From positions 171,981 to 235,980 of the forward strand of contig NZ_JRMV01000281.1 in NCBI RefSeq assembly GCF_000758755.1: DNA of 64,000 bases. Reading direction: 5' to 3'. How positions within the stretch are numbered: the first letter of the stretch is position 1; every line of letters begins with the position of its first letter. Below, one piece after another: positions 20,237 to 64,000 of this stretch. This DNA comes from Actinomyces sp. S6-Spd3 (lineage in GTDB: Bacteria > Actinomycetota > Actinomycetes > Actinomycetales > Actinomycetaceae). Under the pieces are notes generated by a model that saw nothing but the letters and a program-made list of their open reading frames with translations, ran no database searches and was not told where the DNA came from. The position numbers and the translations under genes are program-made.

Positions 20237-21019
20237 ATGAGTAATCTCCACGATCCTCAGCCTGCTGAGGATTCTTCTCGAGTATCACTTCCTCCCGCTG
20301 CTGGGGAGCGCATCGAGCCTCAGAAAGAAATTGCCTCGAAGATCGGGACGGTTGTAGACGGTGACTACTACTACGACCAAAACGACGAGAAGCCTATTCC
20401 TCTTGAAGCAGAGAGAATAGTCTTCGAAAAAGGCTCGACGTTTATGGTGATTTTGTCGTGGTGTTTAGCGCTCTTTCTCTCTCTGCCGTTCCCAACGATG
20501 CTGACCGAAGGAACAGACGCGGTCATTGACACGGATCATCCATTGATCTGGTCCTTCATGCTAGGGGGCGATCTGCTGATCATCGTCCTTCTCATTATTC
20601 ATGGTTTCCTTTATTTCCCAAGTACAGATTGTCTCGACTCCCAAGGGATCACCCTGTCGATCTTGTCAAGGAAAATACAGATTCCGTGGCCGCACTCGCG
20701 AACGGGTTTGTATGTTCGCCTTGTGAACCAGATAGGTCGAGGTCTTCAGACAGCTGAAGTGAAGGTGATTCGTCCAGACGGTTCCTCCGCGTTACTTCCT
20801 ATTACCTTCAGGGGAGTGGATTCAGTCAAAACTGAACGAAATGCTGTCATCCAATGCTCGCGGATCTGGGGCTGGGCGGTGGCAAAGGGCTATACCCAAG
20901 AGAGTGACGAGTACATTCCTCTTGCGGGACTAGGGGTTCAGCAGTCTCTTCGCCGTCGCCAGGAAGAACGCTACGGCCTTCGTGCCCATGTGAACGACAA
21001 CCAGGAAAACCTCCAATAG
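20237..21019 (+). CDS. membrane protein with PH-like domain (paralogue 2)
   Basis: 260 aa, starting directly at the stop of paralogue 1 (TAAATG) and so translationally coupled. Shares VDGDYYYDQNDEKPIP, two transmembrane segments (about 72-92 and 105-127), DCLDSQGITLSILSRKIQIPWPHSRTG (PH-like strands) and YIPLAGLGVQQSLRRRQEERYGLR with it. The polar N-terminal 45 residues and the loop between the membrane segments differ most. The arrangement looks like an old tandem duplication. Function unknown. A perfect 46-nt palindrome follows. Confidence 0.72.
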   Translation: MSNLHDPQPAEDSSRVSLPPAAGERIEPQKEIASKIGTVVDGDYYYDQNDEKPIPLEAERIVFEKGSTFMVILSWCLALFLSLPFPTMLTEGTDAVIDTDHPLIWSFMLGGDLLIIVLLIIHGFLYFPSTDCLDSQGITLSILSRKIQIPWPHSRTGLYVRLVNQIGRGLQTAEVKVIRPDGSSALLPITFRGVDSVKTERNAVIQCSRIWGWAVAKGYTQESDEYIPLAGLGVQQSLRRRQEERYGLRAHVNDNQENLQ

Positions 21020-55874: not shown

Positions 55875-57134
55875 TCAGAGCTTAGGAGTGAGATCGTCTT
55901 TCGTCAGTGTTCCCGCGCGGAGCTTGGCGAAGAAGTCGGGGGCGGTCGTGTCTTCCAAGAGGACAGCACTGCCCGCCGAGGTCGAGTATCCCAAGTCCTC
56001 AATTGGAGGAACACCGGTCATTCCAGAGTTTTGAGCACTGCGGAAAGCCAAAACAAGCTTGCCGACGTCGAGGACAGAAGAATCTTCGTCGACGGTAAAG
56101 GCTGATGCTCCCGCACGCTCGACGCGCAAAGCGCTCGAAGGATTGATCAATGTTGCCGGCTGCATGGCCTTCGATACGGTCTTCGAGACGACCTGGCGCT
56201 GGCGCTGAGCGCGTCCAATATCACCGAGCGGATCGGAGTAGCGCATACGCGCAAAGGCAAGGGCGGTCTTGCCATCTGCATCGTGGCAGCCCGCTTCCCA
56301 ATTGAGTTCGGAGCGCTCGTCATTGACTGTCAAGTCGTAGCAGAGGTTCACTCCGCCGACGGCATCGACGATGTTGGAAACTCCACCCATGCCGATCTCT
56401 GCGTAGTGATCGATCGTTAGTCCCGTGAGTTGTTCAACGGTTTGAACGAGGAGTGTGGGACCGCCGTAGGAATACGCCGCGTTGAGTTTGTCCCACCCGT
56501 ATCCGGGGATTTCAACGTAGGTGTCTCGGGGGAGCGAAATATTGCTGGTCTGCCCATTGGGAGCAACGTGAACCAGCATGATGGAGTCCGCGCGTTGTCC
56601 TTCGGTGTCGTCTGGAACTGAACCGTCGCCACGCGAATCAGAACCTGCAAGAAGATAGGTGGTTCCCGAGGTGCCCGCGGCGCCGGAAAGTGCATCGATT
56701 CGCTTGAGATGCGAATTTGCGTCGAAAAGGAGGTACGCGGGCCACGCAGCGATCAGGAGAATCACGACGAGGGTAACCAGCGGCCAGCGTCGCTTCTTCT
56801 TTCGACGAGGCCGCGGGGACACTGGCGTGCCTGCGGGGGCACTGGGAGGCGCTTGAACGGGCTGGAAGTGAGGCCTAGACGGTGTTGCCGCGCGCGGAAG
56901 CTCGGTTGCTGCAGGAGAAGACGGAGTAAAGCTCGGCGCCGAGGCTACGCGTTTGGCGCGCGGTGCAAAAGAGGGCGGCATGACCGTTTCTTTGGGCCCT
57001 GCCTGGGGAGCAGATTCTTCGACTCCAGGGGAAACAACACCATCGTCTTCGCTGTTAACAGAAGAGTTCTGAACCTCGGAGAGGCGCGGGCGCCTACGCG
57101 AGGGGTCGGGCTGAAAAGAAGGTGGTTGAGTCAT
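55875..57134 (-). CDS. LCP (LytR-CpsA-Psr) family cell-wall ligase 1
   Basis: 419 aa from an ATG overlapping the stop of LCP 2 (ATGA). A long Pro/Ser/Ala-rich cytoplasmic N-terminus (1-110) ends in a basic run (RPRRKKKRR), followed by one transmembrane helix (about 120-138) and the extracytoplasmic LCP domain: LLAGSDSRGDG, RADSIMLVHV, SLPRDTYVEIPGYG, DKLNAAYSYGG, VDAVGGVNLCYD and TALAFARMRY. The Asp and Arg residues that bind pyrophosphate and Mg2+ in this family are in place. LCP enzymes transfer lipid-linked glycans to peptidoglycan, which suits the glycosyltransferase/glf genes nearby. Confidence 0.93.
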   Translation of the reverse strand: MTQPPSFQPDPSRRRPRLSEVQNSSVNSEDDGVVSPGVEESAPQAGPKETVMPPSFAPRAKRVASAPSFTPSSPAATELPRAATPSRPHFQPVQAPPSAPAGTPVSPRPRRKKKRRWPLVTLVVILLIAAWPAYLLFDANSHLKRIDALSGAAGTSGTTYLLAGSDSRGDGSVPDDTEGQRADSIMLVHVAPNGQTSNISLPRDTYVEIPGYGWDKLNAAYSYGGPTLLVQTVEQLTGLTIDHYAEIGMGGVSNIVDAVGGVNLCYDLTVNDERSELNWEAGCHDADGKTALAFARMRYSDPLGDIGRAQRQRQVVSKTVSKAMQPATLINPSSALRVERAGASAFTVDEDSSVLDVGKLVLAFRSAQNSGMTGVPPIEDLGYSTSAGSAVLLEDTTAPDFFAKLRAGTLTKDDLTPKL

Positions 57135-58399
57135 CAGCGTTCCGCCGGGCAAGCTGCGGTGGGGCTTGCGCTTGCAGATGCGCTTGCCGAGGGTGACGTA
57201 CTCGGGGTAGCCGAAGCAGACGCGGAGCTGCTTTCAGAAGGCGAGGCCGAGGCACTCGGTGAGGCATTCGTCTGGCCTTCTTGGCCGCTACCGTTGGTGA
57301 ACTCAATTGCAGCGGGGAAAGGTTGATCCTTGCGGATTGCCTCCCAGGCCTGGCTGAACTGTGGCTCCAGATTGATGACGCGGTTGGGGTCAACGGGGGA
57401 GTACTGGTTCGGCGAGGTAATAAACTGAATATTCGCGCGGTCAATCGAGGACAGGGAGAGCAAAAGACCCACGTCGGTGTTGATATTCGACAGGTTTTGT
57501 GAAGGTTGGAGTGCGGATAGTCCCTGCTTGGTGAAGGACAAGAGCGAAGGAAGATCCGACACGAAGTTCTTGGCGAGCAATTCACGCATAATCGCCGCGA
57601 CCAGTTTTTGCTGATTTGAAATACGGCCCAAATCTGAACCGTCACCCACGGCATAACGCGTACGGGCATAGGCCAGAGCCGTTTTACCGTCGAGTTTTTG
57701 ACATCCCGCCTGCACATGCAAGTCCGAGCGGGAATCATCGATGTCTTCGGGGATGTCGAACCAGACCCCACCCAAAGCGTCGATGAGGCCTCGGAAACCG
57801 TGGAAATCAACGACGACGAAGCCGTCGATGTTCACGCCGGTCAACTGTTCCGTGGTCGCCTCGGTGCAGGCAATACCGCCTGCGATATCGGTGTCATTCG
57901 AACCGGTAGAGAAAGCAGAGTTGAACATTCCGGTGTAGGCGGAAGAAACCGTGCCATCTGAGCGCTTACACGCGGGAATGTCCGTAATGAGATCTCGGGG
58001 AATTGATACGACCTGAACCCGCGTGCGATCTGCGGAAATGTGCATAAGCATGGTCGTATCGGAGTGAATTGATGAAAGCTCCGCAGCGTCACCATTGGCG
58101 TCATCACCTTGGTTCTGGCGTGAGTCAATTCCAGAGATGAGGATATTGACGGGGCGTCCCTCGAAGGAATCGGAAGGCGCGGCGGTCTCGGTGGAGTTCG
58201 CGTTGCCCAGACCCTGGGTATTGATGGAGTTTGACGCAAGCTGGTTGCCGAAATCGCGGTAAATGAAGAAAGCGGTGGAAACCAGCAGGAGGACGCAGGA
58301 GAAGGCAACCAAAGAAATCACTCGTGCTGCACCACTCTTAAATGGGAGCGTTGCCGAGTGAGCAATCGGTCGCGCAATGCGTGATTGTGGAGTACTCAT
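57134..58399 (-). CDS. LCP (LytR-CpsA-Psr) family cell-wall ligase 2
   Basis: 421 aa. The ATG at 58399 is chosen because TATGAT lies 7 nt upstream (leaderless); ATG 58411 lies inside that element. One transmembrane helix (about 28-48), then the LCP domain: ILISGIDSRQNQG, HSDTTMLMHI, SIPRDLITDIP, VDFHGFRGLIDALGGVWFDIP, TALAYARTRYAVGDGSDLGR. A Ser/Ala/Pro low-complexity tail (about 375-421) differs from LCP 1. First gene of a two-gene LCP operon; the overlap ATGA couples it to LCP 1. Confidence 0.93.
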   Translation of the reverse strand: MSTPQSRIARPIAHSATLPFKSGAARVISLVAFSCVLLLVSTAFFIYRDFGNQLASNSINTQGLGNANSTETAAPSDSFEGRPVNILISGIDSRQNQGDDANGDAAELSSIHSDTTMLMHISADRTRVQVVSIPRDLITDIPACKRSDGTVSSAYTGMFNSAFSTGSNDTDIAGGIACTEATTEQLTGVNIDGFVVVDFHGFRGLIDALGGVWFDIPEDIDDSRSDLHVQAGCQKLDGKTALAYARTRYAVGDGSDLGRISNQQKLVAAIMRELLAKNFVSDLPSLLSFTKQGLSALQPSQNLSNINTDVGLLLSLSSIDRANIQFITSPNQYSPVDPNRVINLEPQFSQAWEAIRKDQPFPAAIEFTNGSGQEGQTNASPSASASPSESSSASASATPSTSPSASASASASPTAACPAER

Positions 58400-58406
58400 C
58401 GCCTTT

Positions 58407-58412
58407 ATCATA
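58407..58412 (-). promoter_or_regulatory. -10 element of the LCP operon (leaderless)
   Basis: TATGAT on the minus strand, 7 nt (aaaggcg) before the ATG at 58399. Confidence 0.5.
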
Positions 58413-58435: not shown

Positions 58436-59803
58436 CTATTTTTCGGCGAATTCTCCAAGTTTCCACTCAACGGCACCCGTGGCGGTGAGGGAAGGAATAA
58501 GGACTGCTCGTCCCTGCGCAGCGATGACAGGGCGTGAGTAGCCGGGGGTTTCCCCTAAGCGCGTGATCTGGCCGCTTTCCCATGAACGCAGGTACATCTG
58601 TGCATTGTTCGCCTGCGATCCGGCGCCCCACACGATTGCCTCTTCACCGATGGACACCCAAGGAGTTCGGGAATCGACCATGATCCACTGCGTGGGATAG
58701 TCCGCGGACTTACTGTCCCAGACTCCGAGGTAGGACGAGGCCGCGGAAGACGTCGTTGATGGACTAACGAGGACCGCATGGTGATCTCTGGCGGCGTAGA
58801 GCCCACTGATTCGATAGTCCTGTGATTTCAGGTCGAAGTGGGTGGTGACCCCTGAGAAATCCGTGCCGCTGAGCGTGACAACGCGAGAGGGGGCCGGTGA
58901 GTCCTTCGTAGTTGCAATCACGCTGAGTCCCTGCTCAGAGAGCGCGGGGTAGGCCCCAAAGAGAAGAATCTGCGGTTTGTTGGAGCTCGTTGAAGCGTCC
59001 AGGCTCTGAGTGACGATCAGTGAGTAATCTCCGTGATCAGTTGAGGCTTTTGCGCCGTAAAACGCATGTGTCCCATCGCTGACAGGGGGCAGCTCACCTG
59101 AGCTCCGGGGACTGTGAGCGGGAAGATCCGACCACGTCATCACGGTATGCAGACGTTGCTCGTCCATATTCCAGGAGTAAATCGTCCACGGAGCAAAGAC
59201 ATTGTCCTCTTGGTGGTCTCCGGTTGAGGAAGAAGAAACCTGCCGTCCGAGGAAAGTAATCCAGGGACCGCTTTGTGTCCCGTCGAGGGGTTCAACGTAG
59301 TTGCCGTCTTCTCGAAGTAAATCCGGCGAGAGCTCGCGTGTCCCTTGTGGGGAAAGAATCGCTGGCTTGTAGGAGTACAGGTCGCTCGGGTCATGTGTTG
59401 AGGACCCAAAAACCTGGGAGCCGTCGATGGGAAGAGAAGGAATCTGCCGGAAATCCCCGCCTAGTGTCCATTTCTCATCTACGGAAGATGCCTGGCTTTG
59501 CCCCGATGGAGACAATTCGCATGGCTGATCGCTTGCGTGCATCACGACAAGATCAAAAGGAAGAGAGAGATCTGTGCATACACGCTCGCGAGGATCCTCC
59601 AGCGCGGACTGCGCAACGAGAGGCTCGAAGACGCCGTCCATCTGACGAGGCGATACACTCGCGCTCGCCGAGGCCGAGGAATCCCCACTCCCTCCGCTTG
59701 CGCAGCCGCTAAGGGCGACAAGAGCGCAGGCACTGAGGAAAGCAAAGCGACGCAGGGATGCGCGGCCTCGGCGATGAAGGGAAGGCACCGACTTAGCGGG
59801 CAC
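58436..59803 (-). CDS. secreted lipoprotein of unknown function
   Basis: 455 aa from a GTG at 59803 that overlaps the end of the LGFP gene; a GTG at 59788 is equally possible (neither has a ribosome-binding site). Lipoprotein signal: basic RRGRASLRRF, hydrophobic AFLSACALVALSG and lipobox LSGC. A Ser/Ala linker follows. The rest is beta-rich with recurring Trp and Tyr motifs (APWTIYSWNMDEQRLHTVMTW, YLGVWDSKSADYPTQWIMVD, GEEAIVWGAGSQ), suggestive of a beta-propeller, though blades cannot be counted reliably. No enzyme motif. Probably translated by coupling to the LGFP protein gene. Confidence 0.75.
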   Translation of the reverse strand: MPAKSVPSLHRRGRASLRRFAFLSACALVALSGCASGGSGDSSASASASVSPRQMDGVFEPLVAQSALEDPRERVCTDLSLPFDLVVMHASDQPCELSPSGQSQASSVDEKWTLGGDFRQIPSLPIDGSQVFGSSTHDPSDLYSYKPAILSPQGTRELSPDLLREDGNYVEPLDGTQSGPWITFLGRQVSSSSTGDHQEDNVFAPWTIYSWNMDEQRLHTVMTWSDLPAHSPRSSGELPPVSDGTHAFYGAKASTDHGDYSLIVTQSLDASTSSNKPQILLFGAYPALSEQGLSVIATTKDSPAPSRVVTLSGTDFSGVTTHFDLKSQDYRISGLYAARDHHAVLVSPSTTSSAASSYLGVWDSKSADYPTQWIMVDSRTPWVSIGEEAIVWGAGSQANNAQMYLRSWESGQITRLGETPGYSRPVIAAQGRAVLIPSLTATGAVEWKLGEFAEK

Positions 59804-61695
59804 TGTAGATGCCAATGTGTTCGCGGCCGTCACGCTCAACCTCGGTTTGGAGGAAGTTTTGCGTGAAGGAAGGGAGGTGGTACCAGAACTGTTCCTCGCC
59901 GCCCCAGAGGTAGTGGACGCCCGGATCGGCAATACGCATCGAATCAGTGTTGGCGTCGTATGAGGTAACAACCATGATGTGGGAGAAGGTGGAGTTCGGG
60001 TGACCGTTGTAGTGGGGGCCACCTCGGCGTTCTTGAGCATCAACAGCCGTCGGCAATCCCTTGGAGAAGGATGCCTTCACGGAATCGCGGACCTGCTCAA
60101 CCGAAGGAGTGTGAATCGTCGTATAGGCATCGCGGCCCAGCCAACGATTCATCCCGTACTCGAAACGACGGTCATGGAAGCTCGTGTAGCCGTATCCCAC
60201 GGTGTTCATATAATCGCGGCTTGCTACGGCGTTGATGCTGAGCGGCGTTCCCTGTGCGGAGTGGTGAGCGCCGATCGCGTTGAGGATCATCCAACCACTG
60301 GTCGGACCGCAGAAATAGTTATTAGGCTGCCCGGCCCACGTGACATTGAAGTCATTGGTCTTCTCTAGAACTCCGTCTTCGAAGTTCTGCTTGTGACGGT
60401 TTCCGTCCCAGTAGGGTTCGGAGGTCGGGTATCCCAGGTGGCCACGTTCGTAACCGTGATTGCCGTATTCGGCAAGCAAATCCAGGGGAACAGCGTGAGA
60501 GCCAGAGCGCGGTGACCAGTATGCGGTTCCGCCTTGGAAAATTTGGTAGACGCCGCCGTTCGCGGAAGGCGTTTCATCTGAGGAGGGATAGCCCAGCTCT
60601 CCGCGCTCCCAGTTGTAGAAACCGTAGGTCCCCATGATTGCGTCGTGGACGAAATAGGAATCCGAGCCGGGGTGCCAGTATGCGGTTCCACCTTGGAAAA
60701 TCTGGAACACGCCACCGTTAGCGGACGGGGTTTCATTGCTCAGCGGGTAGCCGTAGCGTCCCCATTCATATCCGGCGCGTCCGTATGCTCCCAGCATTGC
60801 GTCGTGCACGTAGTAGGTGCCAGTGCGGGGGTGCCAGTATGCGGTTCCACCTTGGAAAGTCTGATACACGCCGCCACCTGCGGTAGTGGTCTCTTCGCCC
60901 GTCGGGTAGCCCATCTGGCCGCGTTCCCAGCCCTGAGCTTCCCACAGGTTACGGATACCACCGGTCACCCGGTGCGCGCCGGTGGATGGGTGGAAGTAGA
61001 TTGAGCCACCGGTAAAGTGTTGGTATGCGCCGCCATTGGCAGCGTCCTTCATCTCATCGCTCAAGGGCCAGCCTAGAGAGCGCCCCTCCGCTTCTGCGGT
61101 TTCGTAGCGTTCGAGGATTTTGCCCCAAATAGGGTGGGCGCCGCCTTGGCTGCTCCATCGAATTTGGCCGTTTTCATAGCTTTGGAGCGCGCCGCGAATT
61201 CCTGCGATCGTCTGGTTCTCTTCGTCAGAGGTCGGGAAACCGAGGGGGCCGTTTTCCCACTTTTGTGCGCTGTAGGCACTGTGGATTCCGTCGCGCGAGG
61301 CATGCGCACCGTACTGAGCAGTCCAGTAGATTTGGCCGCCGCGGTAGAACTGGATGAAAGCGCCGTCGCGGAGGGGAACTAGCCCAGAGGTGGCGCTGCC
61401 AAGTACGCCGTTTTCTCCGCCCAAGTCCTGCCAACGCTGACGGATTACGTCAGCGGGGGAGATCGATGTGGGGGGGGGGTGCAGTAACCGTGGTAGTGGT
61501 GGGCGCGGCCTCGTCAGGGGTTGCGTGTGCCGAGGCCGTGGGGGAAGTTGATGGCGTCGCCTCACTGGCCGCGGTGCTGACCGACGGGGAGGGGGATGGT
61601 GAAGCGGAAGAAGAATCTGCGTGTGTTGTAGGGGCAAGTGTAAGCGCAAACAGTGCTGACACTGCACAGGTTGATGCGATAGATGAACGCTTCAT
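59793..61695 (-). pseudogene. LGFP-repeat secreted protein with C39-like peptidase domain, frameshifted at a C10 tract (possible phase-variable gene)
   Basis: The start (ATG 61695, ribosome-binding site gggag) encodes a signal peptide (SIASTCAVSALFALTLAPTTHA) and a Ser/Pro/Thr linker, but this frame stops at 61450. From the poly(C) tract (61470-61479) on, another frame continues to 59793 without interruption: seven LGFP-type repeats (motifs such as NGPLGFPTSDE, RGQMGYPTGEE, RGELGYPSSDE) and a C39-like domain with Cys in NYFCGPTSG, His in TFSHIMVV and Asp in RIADPGVHY. One C fewer (9, or 12) joins both into a protein of about 630 residues. LGFP repeats are wall-binding modules in corynebacteria. 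The break is either a true OFF phase or a homopolymer sequencing error. Confidence 0.85.
61470..61479. repeat. homopolymer G10 (C10 on the coding strand) inside the LGFP gene
   Basis: Ten G on the plus strand between t61469 and t61480. On the coding strand it encodes prolines after VTA; with 9 C the frame reads on as TSISPADVIRQRW into the LGFP repeats, with 10 C it stops 7 codons later. Such tracts slip during replication. Confidence 0.9.
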
Positions 61696-61799
61696 GAAGA
61701 AGTCTCCCGGGGGGCAATGAAACTTACTCTTCAAACACCCTAACTCAAGCGATATCGAGACAGGTGAGCTTGGCTTGGCAATTTCATCACAATTGCCCG

Positions 61800-61811: not shown

Positions 61812-62815
61812 ATGAGCAATCCACGAGTCATCGCCGTCGTCGTTGCATGGAACCGAGCAGCACTTTTACGTGAAACTCTTGATGGGCTTGCCGCTCAGAC
61901 CCGCCCTCTCGACGGCGTTGTTGTGGTTGATAACGCGTCCAGCGACGAGACTCCGCAACTCATTGCCTCTCACCCCGTTGTTTCCAACGTCGTCACTTTG
62001 CCGCAAAACTACGGTGGCGCTGGTGGTTTTGCTGCCGGAATTGCTAGGGCAATGACTGTGGGTGCCGACCTCGTGTGGATCATGGATGACGACACGATCC
62101 CGACCCCAACCGCGCTTGAAGTTCTCTTGCAAACCCGCGAGGCCTATCCCGGCACACCGGCCGTTTTGGCATGTCGAGCCGATTGGATTGACGGACGCGA
62201 GCACCCGATGAATGCGCCTCGTGAGCGCTTCTTGATCTCGCGTGAGCTTCGTGAACACGCGGCTGCCGTTGGTGCGCGTCAGATTCGCACGGCCTCTTTC
62301 GTTGCGATCATGATCGATGCTCGCGCGATTGAGGAAGAAGGGCTTCCTGAAGCCGCCTACTTCTTGTGGAATGACGATTTTGAATACACTGCGCGCCTAC
62401 TCAAGGGACGGGTGGGGCTTTACGTGGATGGCGCACGCGTTGAGCATCGGACGAAGACTTTTGGAAACTCCACTGCCGACCCGGGGCCGCGTTTCTACAA
62501 CGAAGTTCGTAACAAGGTCTGGGCGCTTGGTACCTCGTCTGGTTTTGGGCTCTTTGATCGCTGTGCTTTTGGGGCGGCGACCGCACTGCGCTGGGCAAAG
62601 ATGCTTGCGGCGTCTTCCGATCGCTCGGCTGCTGTGGATTACCTGCGAGAGGGTTTGCGTGATGCGTGGCGTCCGCCTTTGCGCTCAAGCGAGATCCTTC
62701 ATCTGACGGAAGTTGCCGATGAAGTCGCTGCTCTTGAACAGGGCCGGCGCGCTTGCGGGTGCGGCTGCGGATGTTCCTCTTCTGGAGCGCGTGAGTGCTC
62801 TAAGGGGGAGCATCA

Positions 62816-62819
<4 letters not shown>
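61812..62819 (+). CDS. GT2 family glycosyltransferase (GlfT1/galactofuranosyltransferase-like)
   Basis: 335 aa. GT-A fold: VIAVVVAWNRAALLRETLDG, VVVDNASSDET (UDP contact) and the metal motif WIMDDDTIPT; the acceptor region has FLWNDDFEYTARL and VYHxTK-like VEHRTKTFGNS. The arrangement resembles the galactofuranosyltransferases that start galactan in mycobacteria (GlfT1 type), and the glf gene follows two genes later. The C-terminus ends in an unusual Cys/Gly run, RACGCGCGCSSSGARECSKG, absent from typical members. The ATG of the next gene overlaps its stop. No Shine-Dalgarno sequence; probably leaderless. Confidence 0.85.

Positions 62820-64000
<1,181 letters not shown>

What the first reader, a model, noticed from the sequence alone, without database searches (positions are those of the whole stretch)
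59793..61695. Poly(C) tract places a secreted LGFP/C39 wall protein out of frame: candidate phase-variation switch
Signal peptide and linker (61695 down to 61470) and the seven LGFP repeats plus C39-like domain (down to 59793) are both intact but in different frames, and the only break is a run of ten C. Nine or twelve C would join them into one secreted protein. Homopolymer tracts inside surface-protein genes are the classic contingency-locus design, but this is not a well-known strategy for LGFP proteins of this bacterial group. The downstream lipoprotein could be switched along with it.
Basis: partly seen in the sequence, partly recalled or inferred. Interest (0 to 1): 0.85.

Follow-up and report, generated by a model that had tools for sequence, protein, structure and literature searches.

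The report
Ten-C run splits a wall-protein gene
In an unnamed Actinomyces relative, a run of ten C near the front of a wall-protein gene puts the export signal and the working part one base out of step; this may be an on/off switch like those known in other bacteria, but only the original sequencing reads can rule out a miscounted run.

Summary
Window 61470-61479 is ten G (C on the coding strand). It separates a signal peptide and linker (ATG at 61695) from an intact LGFP + C39-like part (to 59793), one base out of register. The genome has only two C runs of 9 or more, both exactly ten.

The gene is not decaying: dN/dS is 0.07-0.11 against three relatives. It is the only one of 55 matched sister-species ORFs that changes frame in the window. 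The sister (about 95% identical) has no tract there, but eight C in the leader of this same gene. The LGFP repeats are the most diverged stretch of the 64 kb.

Three of three full-length orthologs lack the tract, so it is young and not a conserved switch. Length variation could not be tested. My best reading is a recently gained, slippage-prone tract giving ON/OFF expression, as shown for Bifidobacterium breve pili (0.45). A miscounted run (0.28), a recent fixed loss (0.17) or RNA-level slippage (0.10) remain open. The galactofuranose/LCP neighbourhood suggests a wall-polymer-bound enzyme. Candidate new member of a known kind, unproven.

The parts
61470..61479 (-). run of ten C (coding strand) in the linker; frame junction
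   Evidence: sequence; absent from 3 of 3 full-length orthologs
61450..61695 (-). 5' ORF: Sec-type signal peptide (by eye) plus Ser/Thr/Pro/Ala linker, 81 aa, stops shortly after the tract
   Evidence: N-terminus aligns with the in-frame orthologs
59793..61460 (-). main body: 6 LGFP repeats found by Pfam plus a degenerate seventh, then C39-like domain; open, 555 codons
   Evidence: Pfam; PS1 structures 6swz/6sx4 match residues 90-313; dN/dS
59796..60377 (-). C39-like cysteine peptidase domain (Cys in NNYFCGPTS, His in SHIMVV, Asp in ADPG)
   Evidence: PF13529 34.4 bits; 94-97% identical in 3 orthologs; the triad assignment is recalled knowledge of papain-like folds, and the fold prediction failed
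61709..61714 (-). second C run in the leader next to the ribosome site: 6 C here and in two relatives, 8 C in the sister species
58436..59788 (-). putative lipoprotein (LSGC lipobox), GTG start 4 nt after the stop of the C39 gene; possible polar partner
   Evidence: my lipobox pattern matched 2 of the 4 species (window, ph3); no Pfam or NCBIfam family
55875..58411 (-). two LytR-CpsA-Psr ligase-like genes (wall-polymer attachment)
   Evidence: PF03816 on both
61812..63998 (+). divergent wall-polysaccharide cluster: GlfT1-like glycosyltransferase, second GT2, UDP-galactopyranose mutase (runs off the window)

Best explanation
A recently gained, slippage-prone poly(C) tract in the linker of a secreted wall protein; the sequenced consensus is in an OFF (frame-broken) state. 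When the tract has another length class, the Sec signal and the LGFP-C39 body would be one protein, exported and held on the wall by its LGFP repeats. In the present frame only an 81-aa secreted stub would be made, and the lipoprotein 4 nt downstream would probably be reduced by polarity. Length changes during replication would therefore switch the protein stochastically. Shown here: the tract, the frames, the constraint, the neighbours. Inferred: reversibility, switching, polarity, and the target being a galactofuranose-type wall polymer.
For: One of two C runs of 9 or more in 2.09 Mb, both ten. The other is ten G just 5' of an alpha/beta-hydrolase ATG, where the sister G017 has five; so, against the sister, both long tracts are expansions at places that can affect translation. 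The body is open with dN/dS 0.07-0.11 over 555 codons; by outgroup parsimony the window branch has 32 synonymous and 6 nonsynonymous changes, the sister 61.25 and 27.75. Of 67 sister ORFs of 120 aa or more, 55 match the window and 1 of 55 changes frame: this one; in reverse, 1 of 51 window ORFs does, the same one. The sister has its own long C run (8) in the leader of this same gene, one of only two C8 runs in that genome; chance about 0.002 if placed at random, about 0.01 if the 6-C run there is counted as a ready seed. The LGFP repeats hold the least conserved windows of the 64 kb against the sister (0.72-0.79; 30 of 32 two-kb blocks are 0.90-0.99), as expected of a surface part under diversification. 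Same architecture as a demonstrated switch in B. breve.
Against: No length polymorphism was observed; only one assembly of this species was available, and a second copy of the locus in it was sought and not found (1 match). All 3 full-length orthologs lack the tract, and a more distant homolog in G029 (70% identical over the C39 part) is open with no run of 7 or more in the gene. The 930-aa LGFP paralog of this genome has none either. In Cutibacterium acnes most tract lengths follow clades, suggesting slow change rather than active switching (PMC4746626 abstract passage and section 17). Composition alone would allow runs this long. A homopolymer of this length is where assemblies miscount.
Confidence: 0.45

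Rival explanations
1. Miscounted homopolymer: the real consensus length is in frame and the gene is an ordinary, always-expressed secreted protein with a short poly-proline stretch.
For: Long G/C homopolymers are error-prone; PMC9187656 warns that deposited G-tract lengths can differ from measured ones (passage). Strong constraint on the body fits a gene in use. The assembly has 281 contigs, platform unknown.
Against: No other frame break among 55 matched ORFs, although the window holds no other C run above 6, so this is a weak test. A tract of about this length would still be slippage-prone (inference).
Confidence: 0.28
2. Recent fixed loss of function in this isolate: a one-off slippage event, not a regulated or recurrent switch.
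For: Tract absent from 3 of 3 orthologs; a G024 gene cut by a ten-G run also looks N-terminally degraded, so such tracts can mark plain decay. Only 6 of 35 genomes of the genus have an LGFP match, so the family is dispensable in the genus.
Against: No second lesion, and fewer amino-acid changes on this branch than on the sister's (the sister's count is raised by its diverged repeats).
Confidence: 0.17
3. Slippage by RNA polymerase or ribosome on the C run yields a steady fraction of full-length protein, so the DNA length need not change.
For: Known recoding route at homopolymers (recalled); by eye no internal start with a signal peptide downstream of the tract.
Against: No unusual RNA structure around the tract: fold z-score 0.16, 108 of 200 shuffles at least as stable. 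Poly(C) is a less usual slippery template than poly(A) or poly(U) (recalled).
Confidence: 0.1

Closest known systems
Bifidobacterium breve sortase-pilus G-tract switch (bbr_0113, bbr_1889; PMC9187656, abstract, passages and section 15 read)
   Same: Actinobacterium; Sec signal in a short 5' ORF, body in another frame, G/C homopolymer between, no credible start in the body, reduced transcription downstream
   Different: Pilin with sortase rather than LGFP-C39 protein; tract is G on the coding strand and occurs in several Bifidobacterium species; length variation was measured there, not here
Cutibacterium acnes homopolymeric tracts (PMC4746626, passages and section 17 read)
   Same: G/C tracts within or before genes, including some of surface proteins and an autolysin
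   Different: 54 polymorphic tracts over 90 genomes, lengths mostly following clades; here two runs of 9 or more in one genome
Gardnerella homopolymer tracts (PMC11287997, passages read)
   Same: Long tracts in genes that appear to code surface proteins of an actinobacterium, one shown to vary in length
   Different: Many tracts per genome (median 20 G/C); here only two C/G runs of 9 or more and three of 8 or more
Corynebacterium glutamicum PS1 LGFP domain (PDB 6swz, 6sx4)
   Same: LGFP repeat array on a wall protein, E 1.4e-30 over residues 90-313
   Different: Joined there to a mycoloyltransferase domain (recalled), here to a C39-like domain

Membership tests
Homopolymer contingency (phase-variation) locus | homopolymer tract of 8 or more in the early ORF or control region | tested here: met
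   ten C, 216 nt after the ATG
Homopolymer contingency (phase-variation) locus | tract is the only lesion; coding on both sides intact | tested here: met
Homopolymer contingency (phase-variation) locus | tract longer than expected in its genome | tested here: inconclusive
   outlier against the genome's own run spectrum, not against base composition
Homopolymer contingency (phase-variation) locus | length varies among strains or within a culture | not testable with these tools
   one assembly per species; no reads; only one copy in own genome
Homopolymer contingency (phase-variation) locus | tract kept at the same site in related species (common, not defining) | tested here: not met
   0 of 3 full-length orthologs; the sister has 8 C in the leader instead
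Homopolymer contingency (phase-variation) locus | expression or phenotype switches reversibly | not testable with these tools
   needs culture work
LGFP-repeat protein (PF08310) | repeats above the curated cut-off | tested here: met
   6 stretches, 301.4 bits, cut-off 22; 6 places over cut-off in this gene
Peptidase_C39_2 (PF13529) | profile score above cut-off | tested here: met
   34.4 against 24 bits, profile positions 2-142 of 143
Peptidase_C39_2 (PF13529) | papain-like fold with Cys-His-Asp | tested here: inconclusive
   residues invariant in 4 sequences; model pLDDT 39.9, unusable
GlfT1 galactofuranosyltransferase (NF050113), neighbour gene | equivalog cut-off 330 bits | tested here: not met
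   95.1 bits, best of 11 families listed: GlfT1-like only
UDP-galactopyranose mutase (TIGR00031), neighbour gene | equivalog cut-off 303.75 bits | tested here: met
   340.1 bits

The most novel reading that the evidence does not exclude
This LGFP-C39 gene is a surface-diversification hotspot of this Actinomyces group: sister species have independently lengthened C runs at different control points of the same gene (linker here, leader in the sister) and exchanged its LGFP repeats, so that expression and ligand-binding surface both vary. The likely ligand is a galactofuranose wall polymer made and attached by the flanking genes, with phage or host antibody as the selecting agent.
Probability: 0.2. 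Interest if true: 0.62.

Novelty: new member of a known kind. Interest (0 to 1): 0.42.

Why it matters
If the tract varies, it would be a slippage switch on an LGFP wall protein, which I did not find described: searches of the held library for LGFP with phase variation (0 papers), Schaalia with phase variation (1 listing, on gastric cancer) and Actinomyces with phase variation and homopolymeric (1 listing, on phosphorylcholine genes) gave none; only the listings were seen, and the library lacks most subscription papers. It would show stochastic control of a probable wall-bound hydrolase in this group and suggest that LGFP repeats read a galactofuranose polymer outside the mycolate-bearing bacteria.

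Tried and rejected
Plain pseudogene: rejected as the leading view because no second lesion and no relaxed constraint were found.

General bad assembly: one frame break in 55 matched ORFs; not excluded for this one run.

Genus-wide poly(C) switch repertoire: 33 of 35 genomes have a C9 match, with counts of matching positions from 0 to 744. I took 18 stretches from six of those genomes and listed ORFs around the runs; I saw no shared pattern, several runs lie in G-then-C pairs or near masked N, and I did not classify them one by one. Dropped.

G024 ten-G run in an NAD(P)-binding gene: its two sides are in different frames but the start of the Rossmann profile is missing, and the other genomes gave only short partial matches or none; treated as probable decay, not support.

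Other C runs of own genome: the 8-C run at C279:61751-61758 has a 7-G run 16 bases before it, downstream of a gene that reads by eye as groEL; probably a terminator stem.

mRNA structure at the tract and promoter/terminator scan: nothing above shuffles. Structure prediction of the C39 part from 4 near-identical sequences failed (pLDDT 39.9); no fold search was made.

Full report
What is there. On the minus strand an ATG at 61695, after a GGGAG ribosome site, opens a Sec-type signal peptide (by eye) and a Ser/Thr/Pro/Ala linker. At 61479-61470 lies a run of ten C; the frame then stops at 61450 (81 aa). The LGFP and C39-like body is in another frame and runs open to the stop at 59793. Pfam gives 6 LGFP stretches (301.4 bits in all) and Peptidase_C39_2 at 34.4 bits. 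The LGFP part matches the solved C. glutamicum PS1 protein.

Is the run unusual? In the window every other homopolymer is 6 or shorter. In the whole 2.09-Mb assembly, subtracting overlapping matches gives 236 C runs (both strands) of 6 or more, 11 of 7 or more, 3 of 8 or more and 2 of 9 or more; both of the last are exactly ten. Extrapolating the decline gives 0.001 (from 6 to 7) or 0.2 (from 7 to 8) runs of ten or more. Composition alone would predict about 10.6, and 9 of 100 dinucleotide shuffles of the window held at least two C9 matches. So long runs are depleted in this genome and these two stand out, but the excess is against the genome's own trend, judged after the fact.

The second ten-run is ten G directly 5' of the start of an alpha/beta hydrolase. 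The sister species G017 has five G there and is 96% identical in the protein; the leaders of the other two relatives were not compared. The third longest run (8) has a 7-G run 16 bases before it and is probably a terminator stem.

Relatives. Of 58 genomes searched, own included, 16 have some match; three others carry the full body at 87-89% identity: G017 (record named Actinomyces marseillensis), G026 (Actinomyces sp. ph3) and G024 (deposited as Trueperella pyogenes 331_TPYO, but placed here in the same genus as the window) (the pairing of handles with names is mine, from equal coordinates and contig lengths). All three are in frame and none has the C run; their linkers differ in length. A more distant homolog in G029 (70% over the C39 part) is also open, with no run of 7 or more in the gene. 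In the leader, next to the ribosome site, there are 6 C in the window, G024 and G026, and 8 C in G017, one of only two C8 runs of that genome. The gene was chosen before I looked at G017, so this coincidence has some weight: about 0.002 by random placement, about 0.01 if one starts from a 6-C seed. The other two relatives show no such expansion.

Is the gene alive? Over 555 codons dN/dS is 0.073 to 0.114 for the window against the three relatives; for the C39 part 0.019 to 0.042. Counting changes by parsimony with G024 and G026 as outgroup gives 32 synonymous and 6 nonsynonymous on the window branch, 61.25 and 27.75 on the G017 branch (codons where the two outgroups differ, or where both window and G017 differ from them, were not counted; the G017 count is raised by its diverged repeats). 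Of 67 G017 ORFs of 120 aa or more in four of the five fetched stretches, 55 matched the window; 5 were flagged: one for a frame change (this gene), two for a stop in the window frame (not examined; probably spurious antisense ORFs), two for short coverage, of which one runs off the window end and the other matches the window's first bases. In reverse, 51 of 51 window ORFs matched G017; 7 were flagged: one for a frame change (this gene), five for stops and one at a stretch edge. In the DNA alignment several non-triplet gaps fall in one divergent ORF at 20237-21019, which the protein test did not flag. A second version of the locus elsewhere in the assembly was sought and not found.

A divergent domain. 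Against G017, 30 of 32 two-kb blocks of the window are 0.90 to 0.99 identical (mean about 0.95), but 300-base windows starting at 60201-60801, mostly in the LGFP repeats (60366 upward), are 0.72 to 0.79, the lowest of the 64 kb together with an apparently intergenic stretch near 17.0 kb. In codons 161-360 of the body (window 60381-60980) the window resembles G024 and G026 more than its sister, while the C39 part (0.85-0.94 to the sister) resembles the sister more. That looks like exchange of repeat cassettes in one lineage; constraint remains, so it is not simple decay.

Surroundings. Downstream, 4 nt after the stop, starts a putative lipoprotein with an LSGC lipobox, then two LytR-CpsA-Psr genes. 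Divergently upstream are a GlfT1-like glycosyltransferase (95.1 bits, below the 330-bit cut-off), a second glycosyltransferase, a UDP-galactopyranose mutase (340.1 bits, above cut-off), and an ABC exporter pair; its permease best fits galactan export Wzm (46.5 of 380 bits needed) and its ATPase best fits teichoic-acid export, galactan export third, all below cut-off. From this I infer that the cluster makes and attaches a galactofuranose-containing wall polymer and that the LGFP repeats hold the C39-like enzyme on it. Binding and enzyme activity were not tested; the C39 model was of no use.

Mechanism. B. breve pilin genes have the same layout; their expression was reported to depend on replication slippage at the G tract, with a range of lengths in the population and transcription strongly reduced beyond the short 5' ORF (abstract, passages and section 15 of PMC9187656). 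C. acnes and Gardnerella give further actinobacterial cases (PMC4746626; PMC11287997), with the caution that C. acnes lengths mostly follow clades. By analogy I prefer a young ON/OFF slippage site (0.45). A miscount of the run (0.28), a one-off recent loss (0.17) and RNA-level slippage (0.10) remain. Even if the count is wrong, a C run near ten should remain prone to slippage (inference). No data here show that the length varies.

Novelty. The kind is well known; the protein family and group seem new for it, as far as three literature searches in the held library go. Interest is moderate because the decisive datum, length variation, is missing.

Noticed in passing
window 60381-60980: LGFP repeats (codons 161-360 of the body) are the most diverged part of the 64 kb against the sister species (0.67-0.78 in 120-base steps; 300-base minimum 0.72) while most of the window is 0.90-0.99; looks like exchange of repeat cassettes.
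   Followed up: partly
L079:3036-3045 (G000:C272:131335-131344): The genome's only other ten-base G/C run lies just 5' of an alpha/beta-hydrolase start codon; five G in the sister.
   Followed up: partly
window 61709-61714; L125:1501-1508: C run in the leader beside the ribosome site: 6 in three species, 8 in G017; a stretch just upstream (TAGGGTGTTTGAAGAGT) is the same in all four.
   Followed up: partly
L124:1501-1508 and 1524-1531 (G026): Two 8-G runs 15 bases apart between two genes that look by eye like surface proteins; a possible promoter-type tract.
   Followed up: no
L123:1501-1510 (G024): Ten-base G run on the coding strand in an NAD(P)-binding gene with the two sides in different frames; gene looks N-terminally degraded.
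   Followed up: partly
window 61435-61455: A perfect 8-pair hairpin begins 14 bases after the tract (drawn in the fold); overall fold no better than shuffles.
   Followed up: no
L140 (G000:C281:235000-247000): The wall-polysaccharide cluster goes on past the window: UDP-galactopyranose mutase, ABC exporter pair, large unassigned proteins, a further glycosyltransferase.
   Followed up: partly
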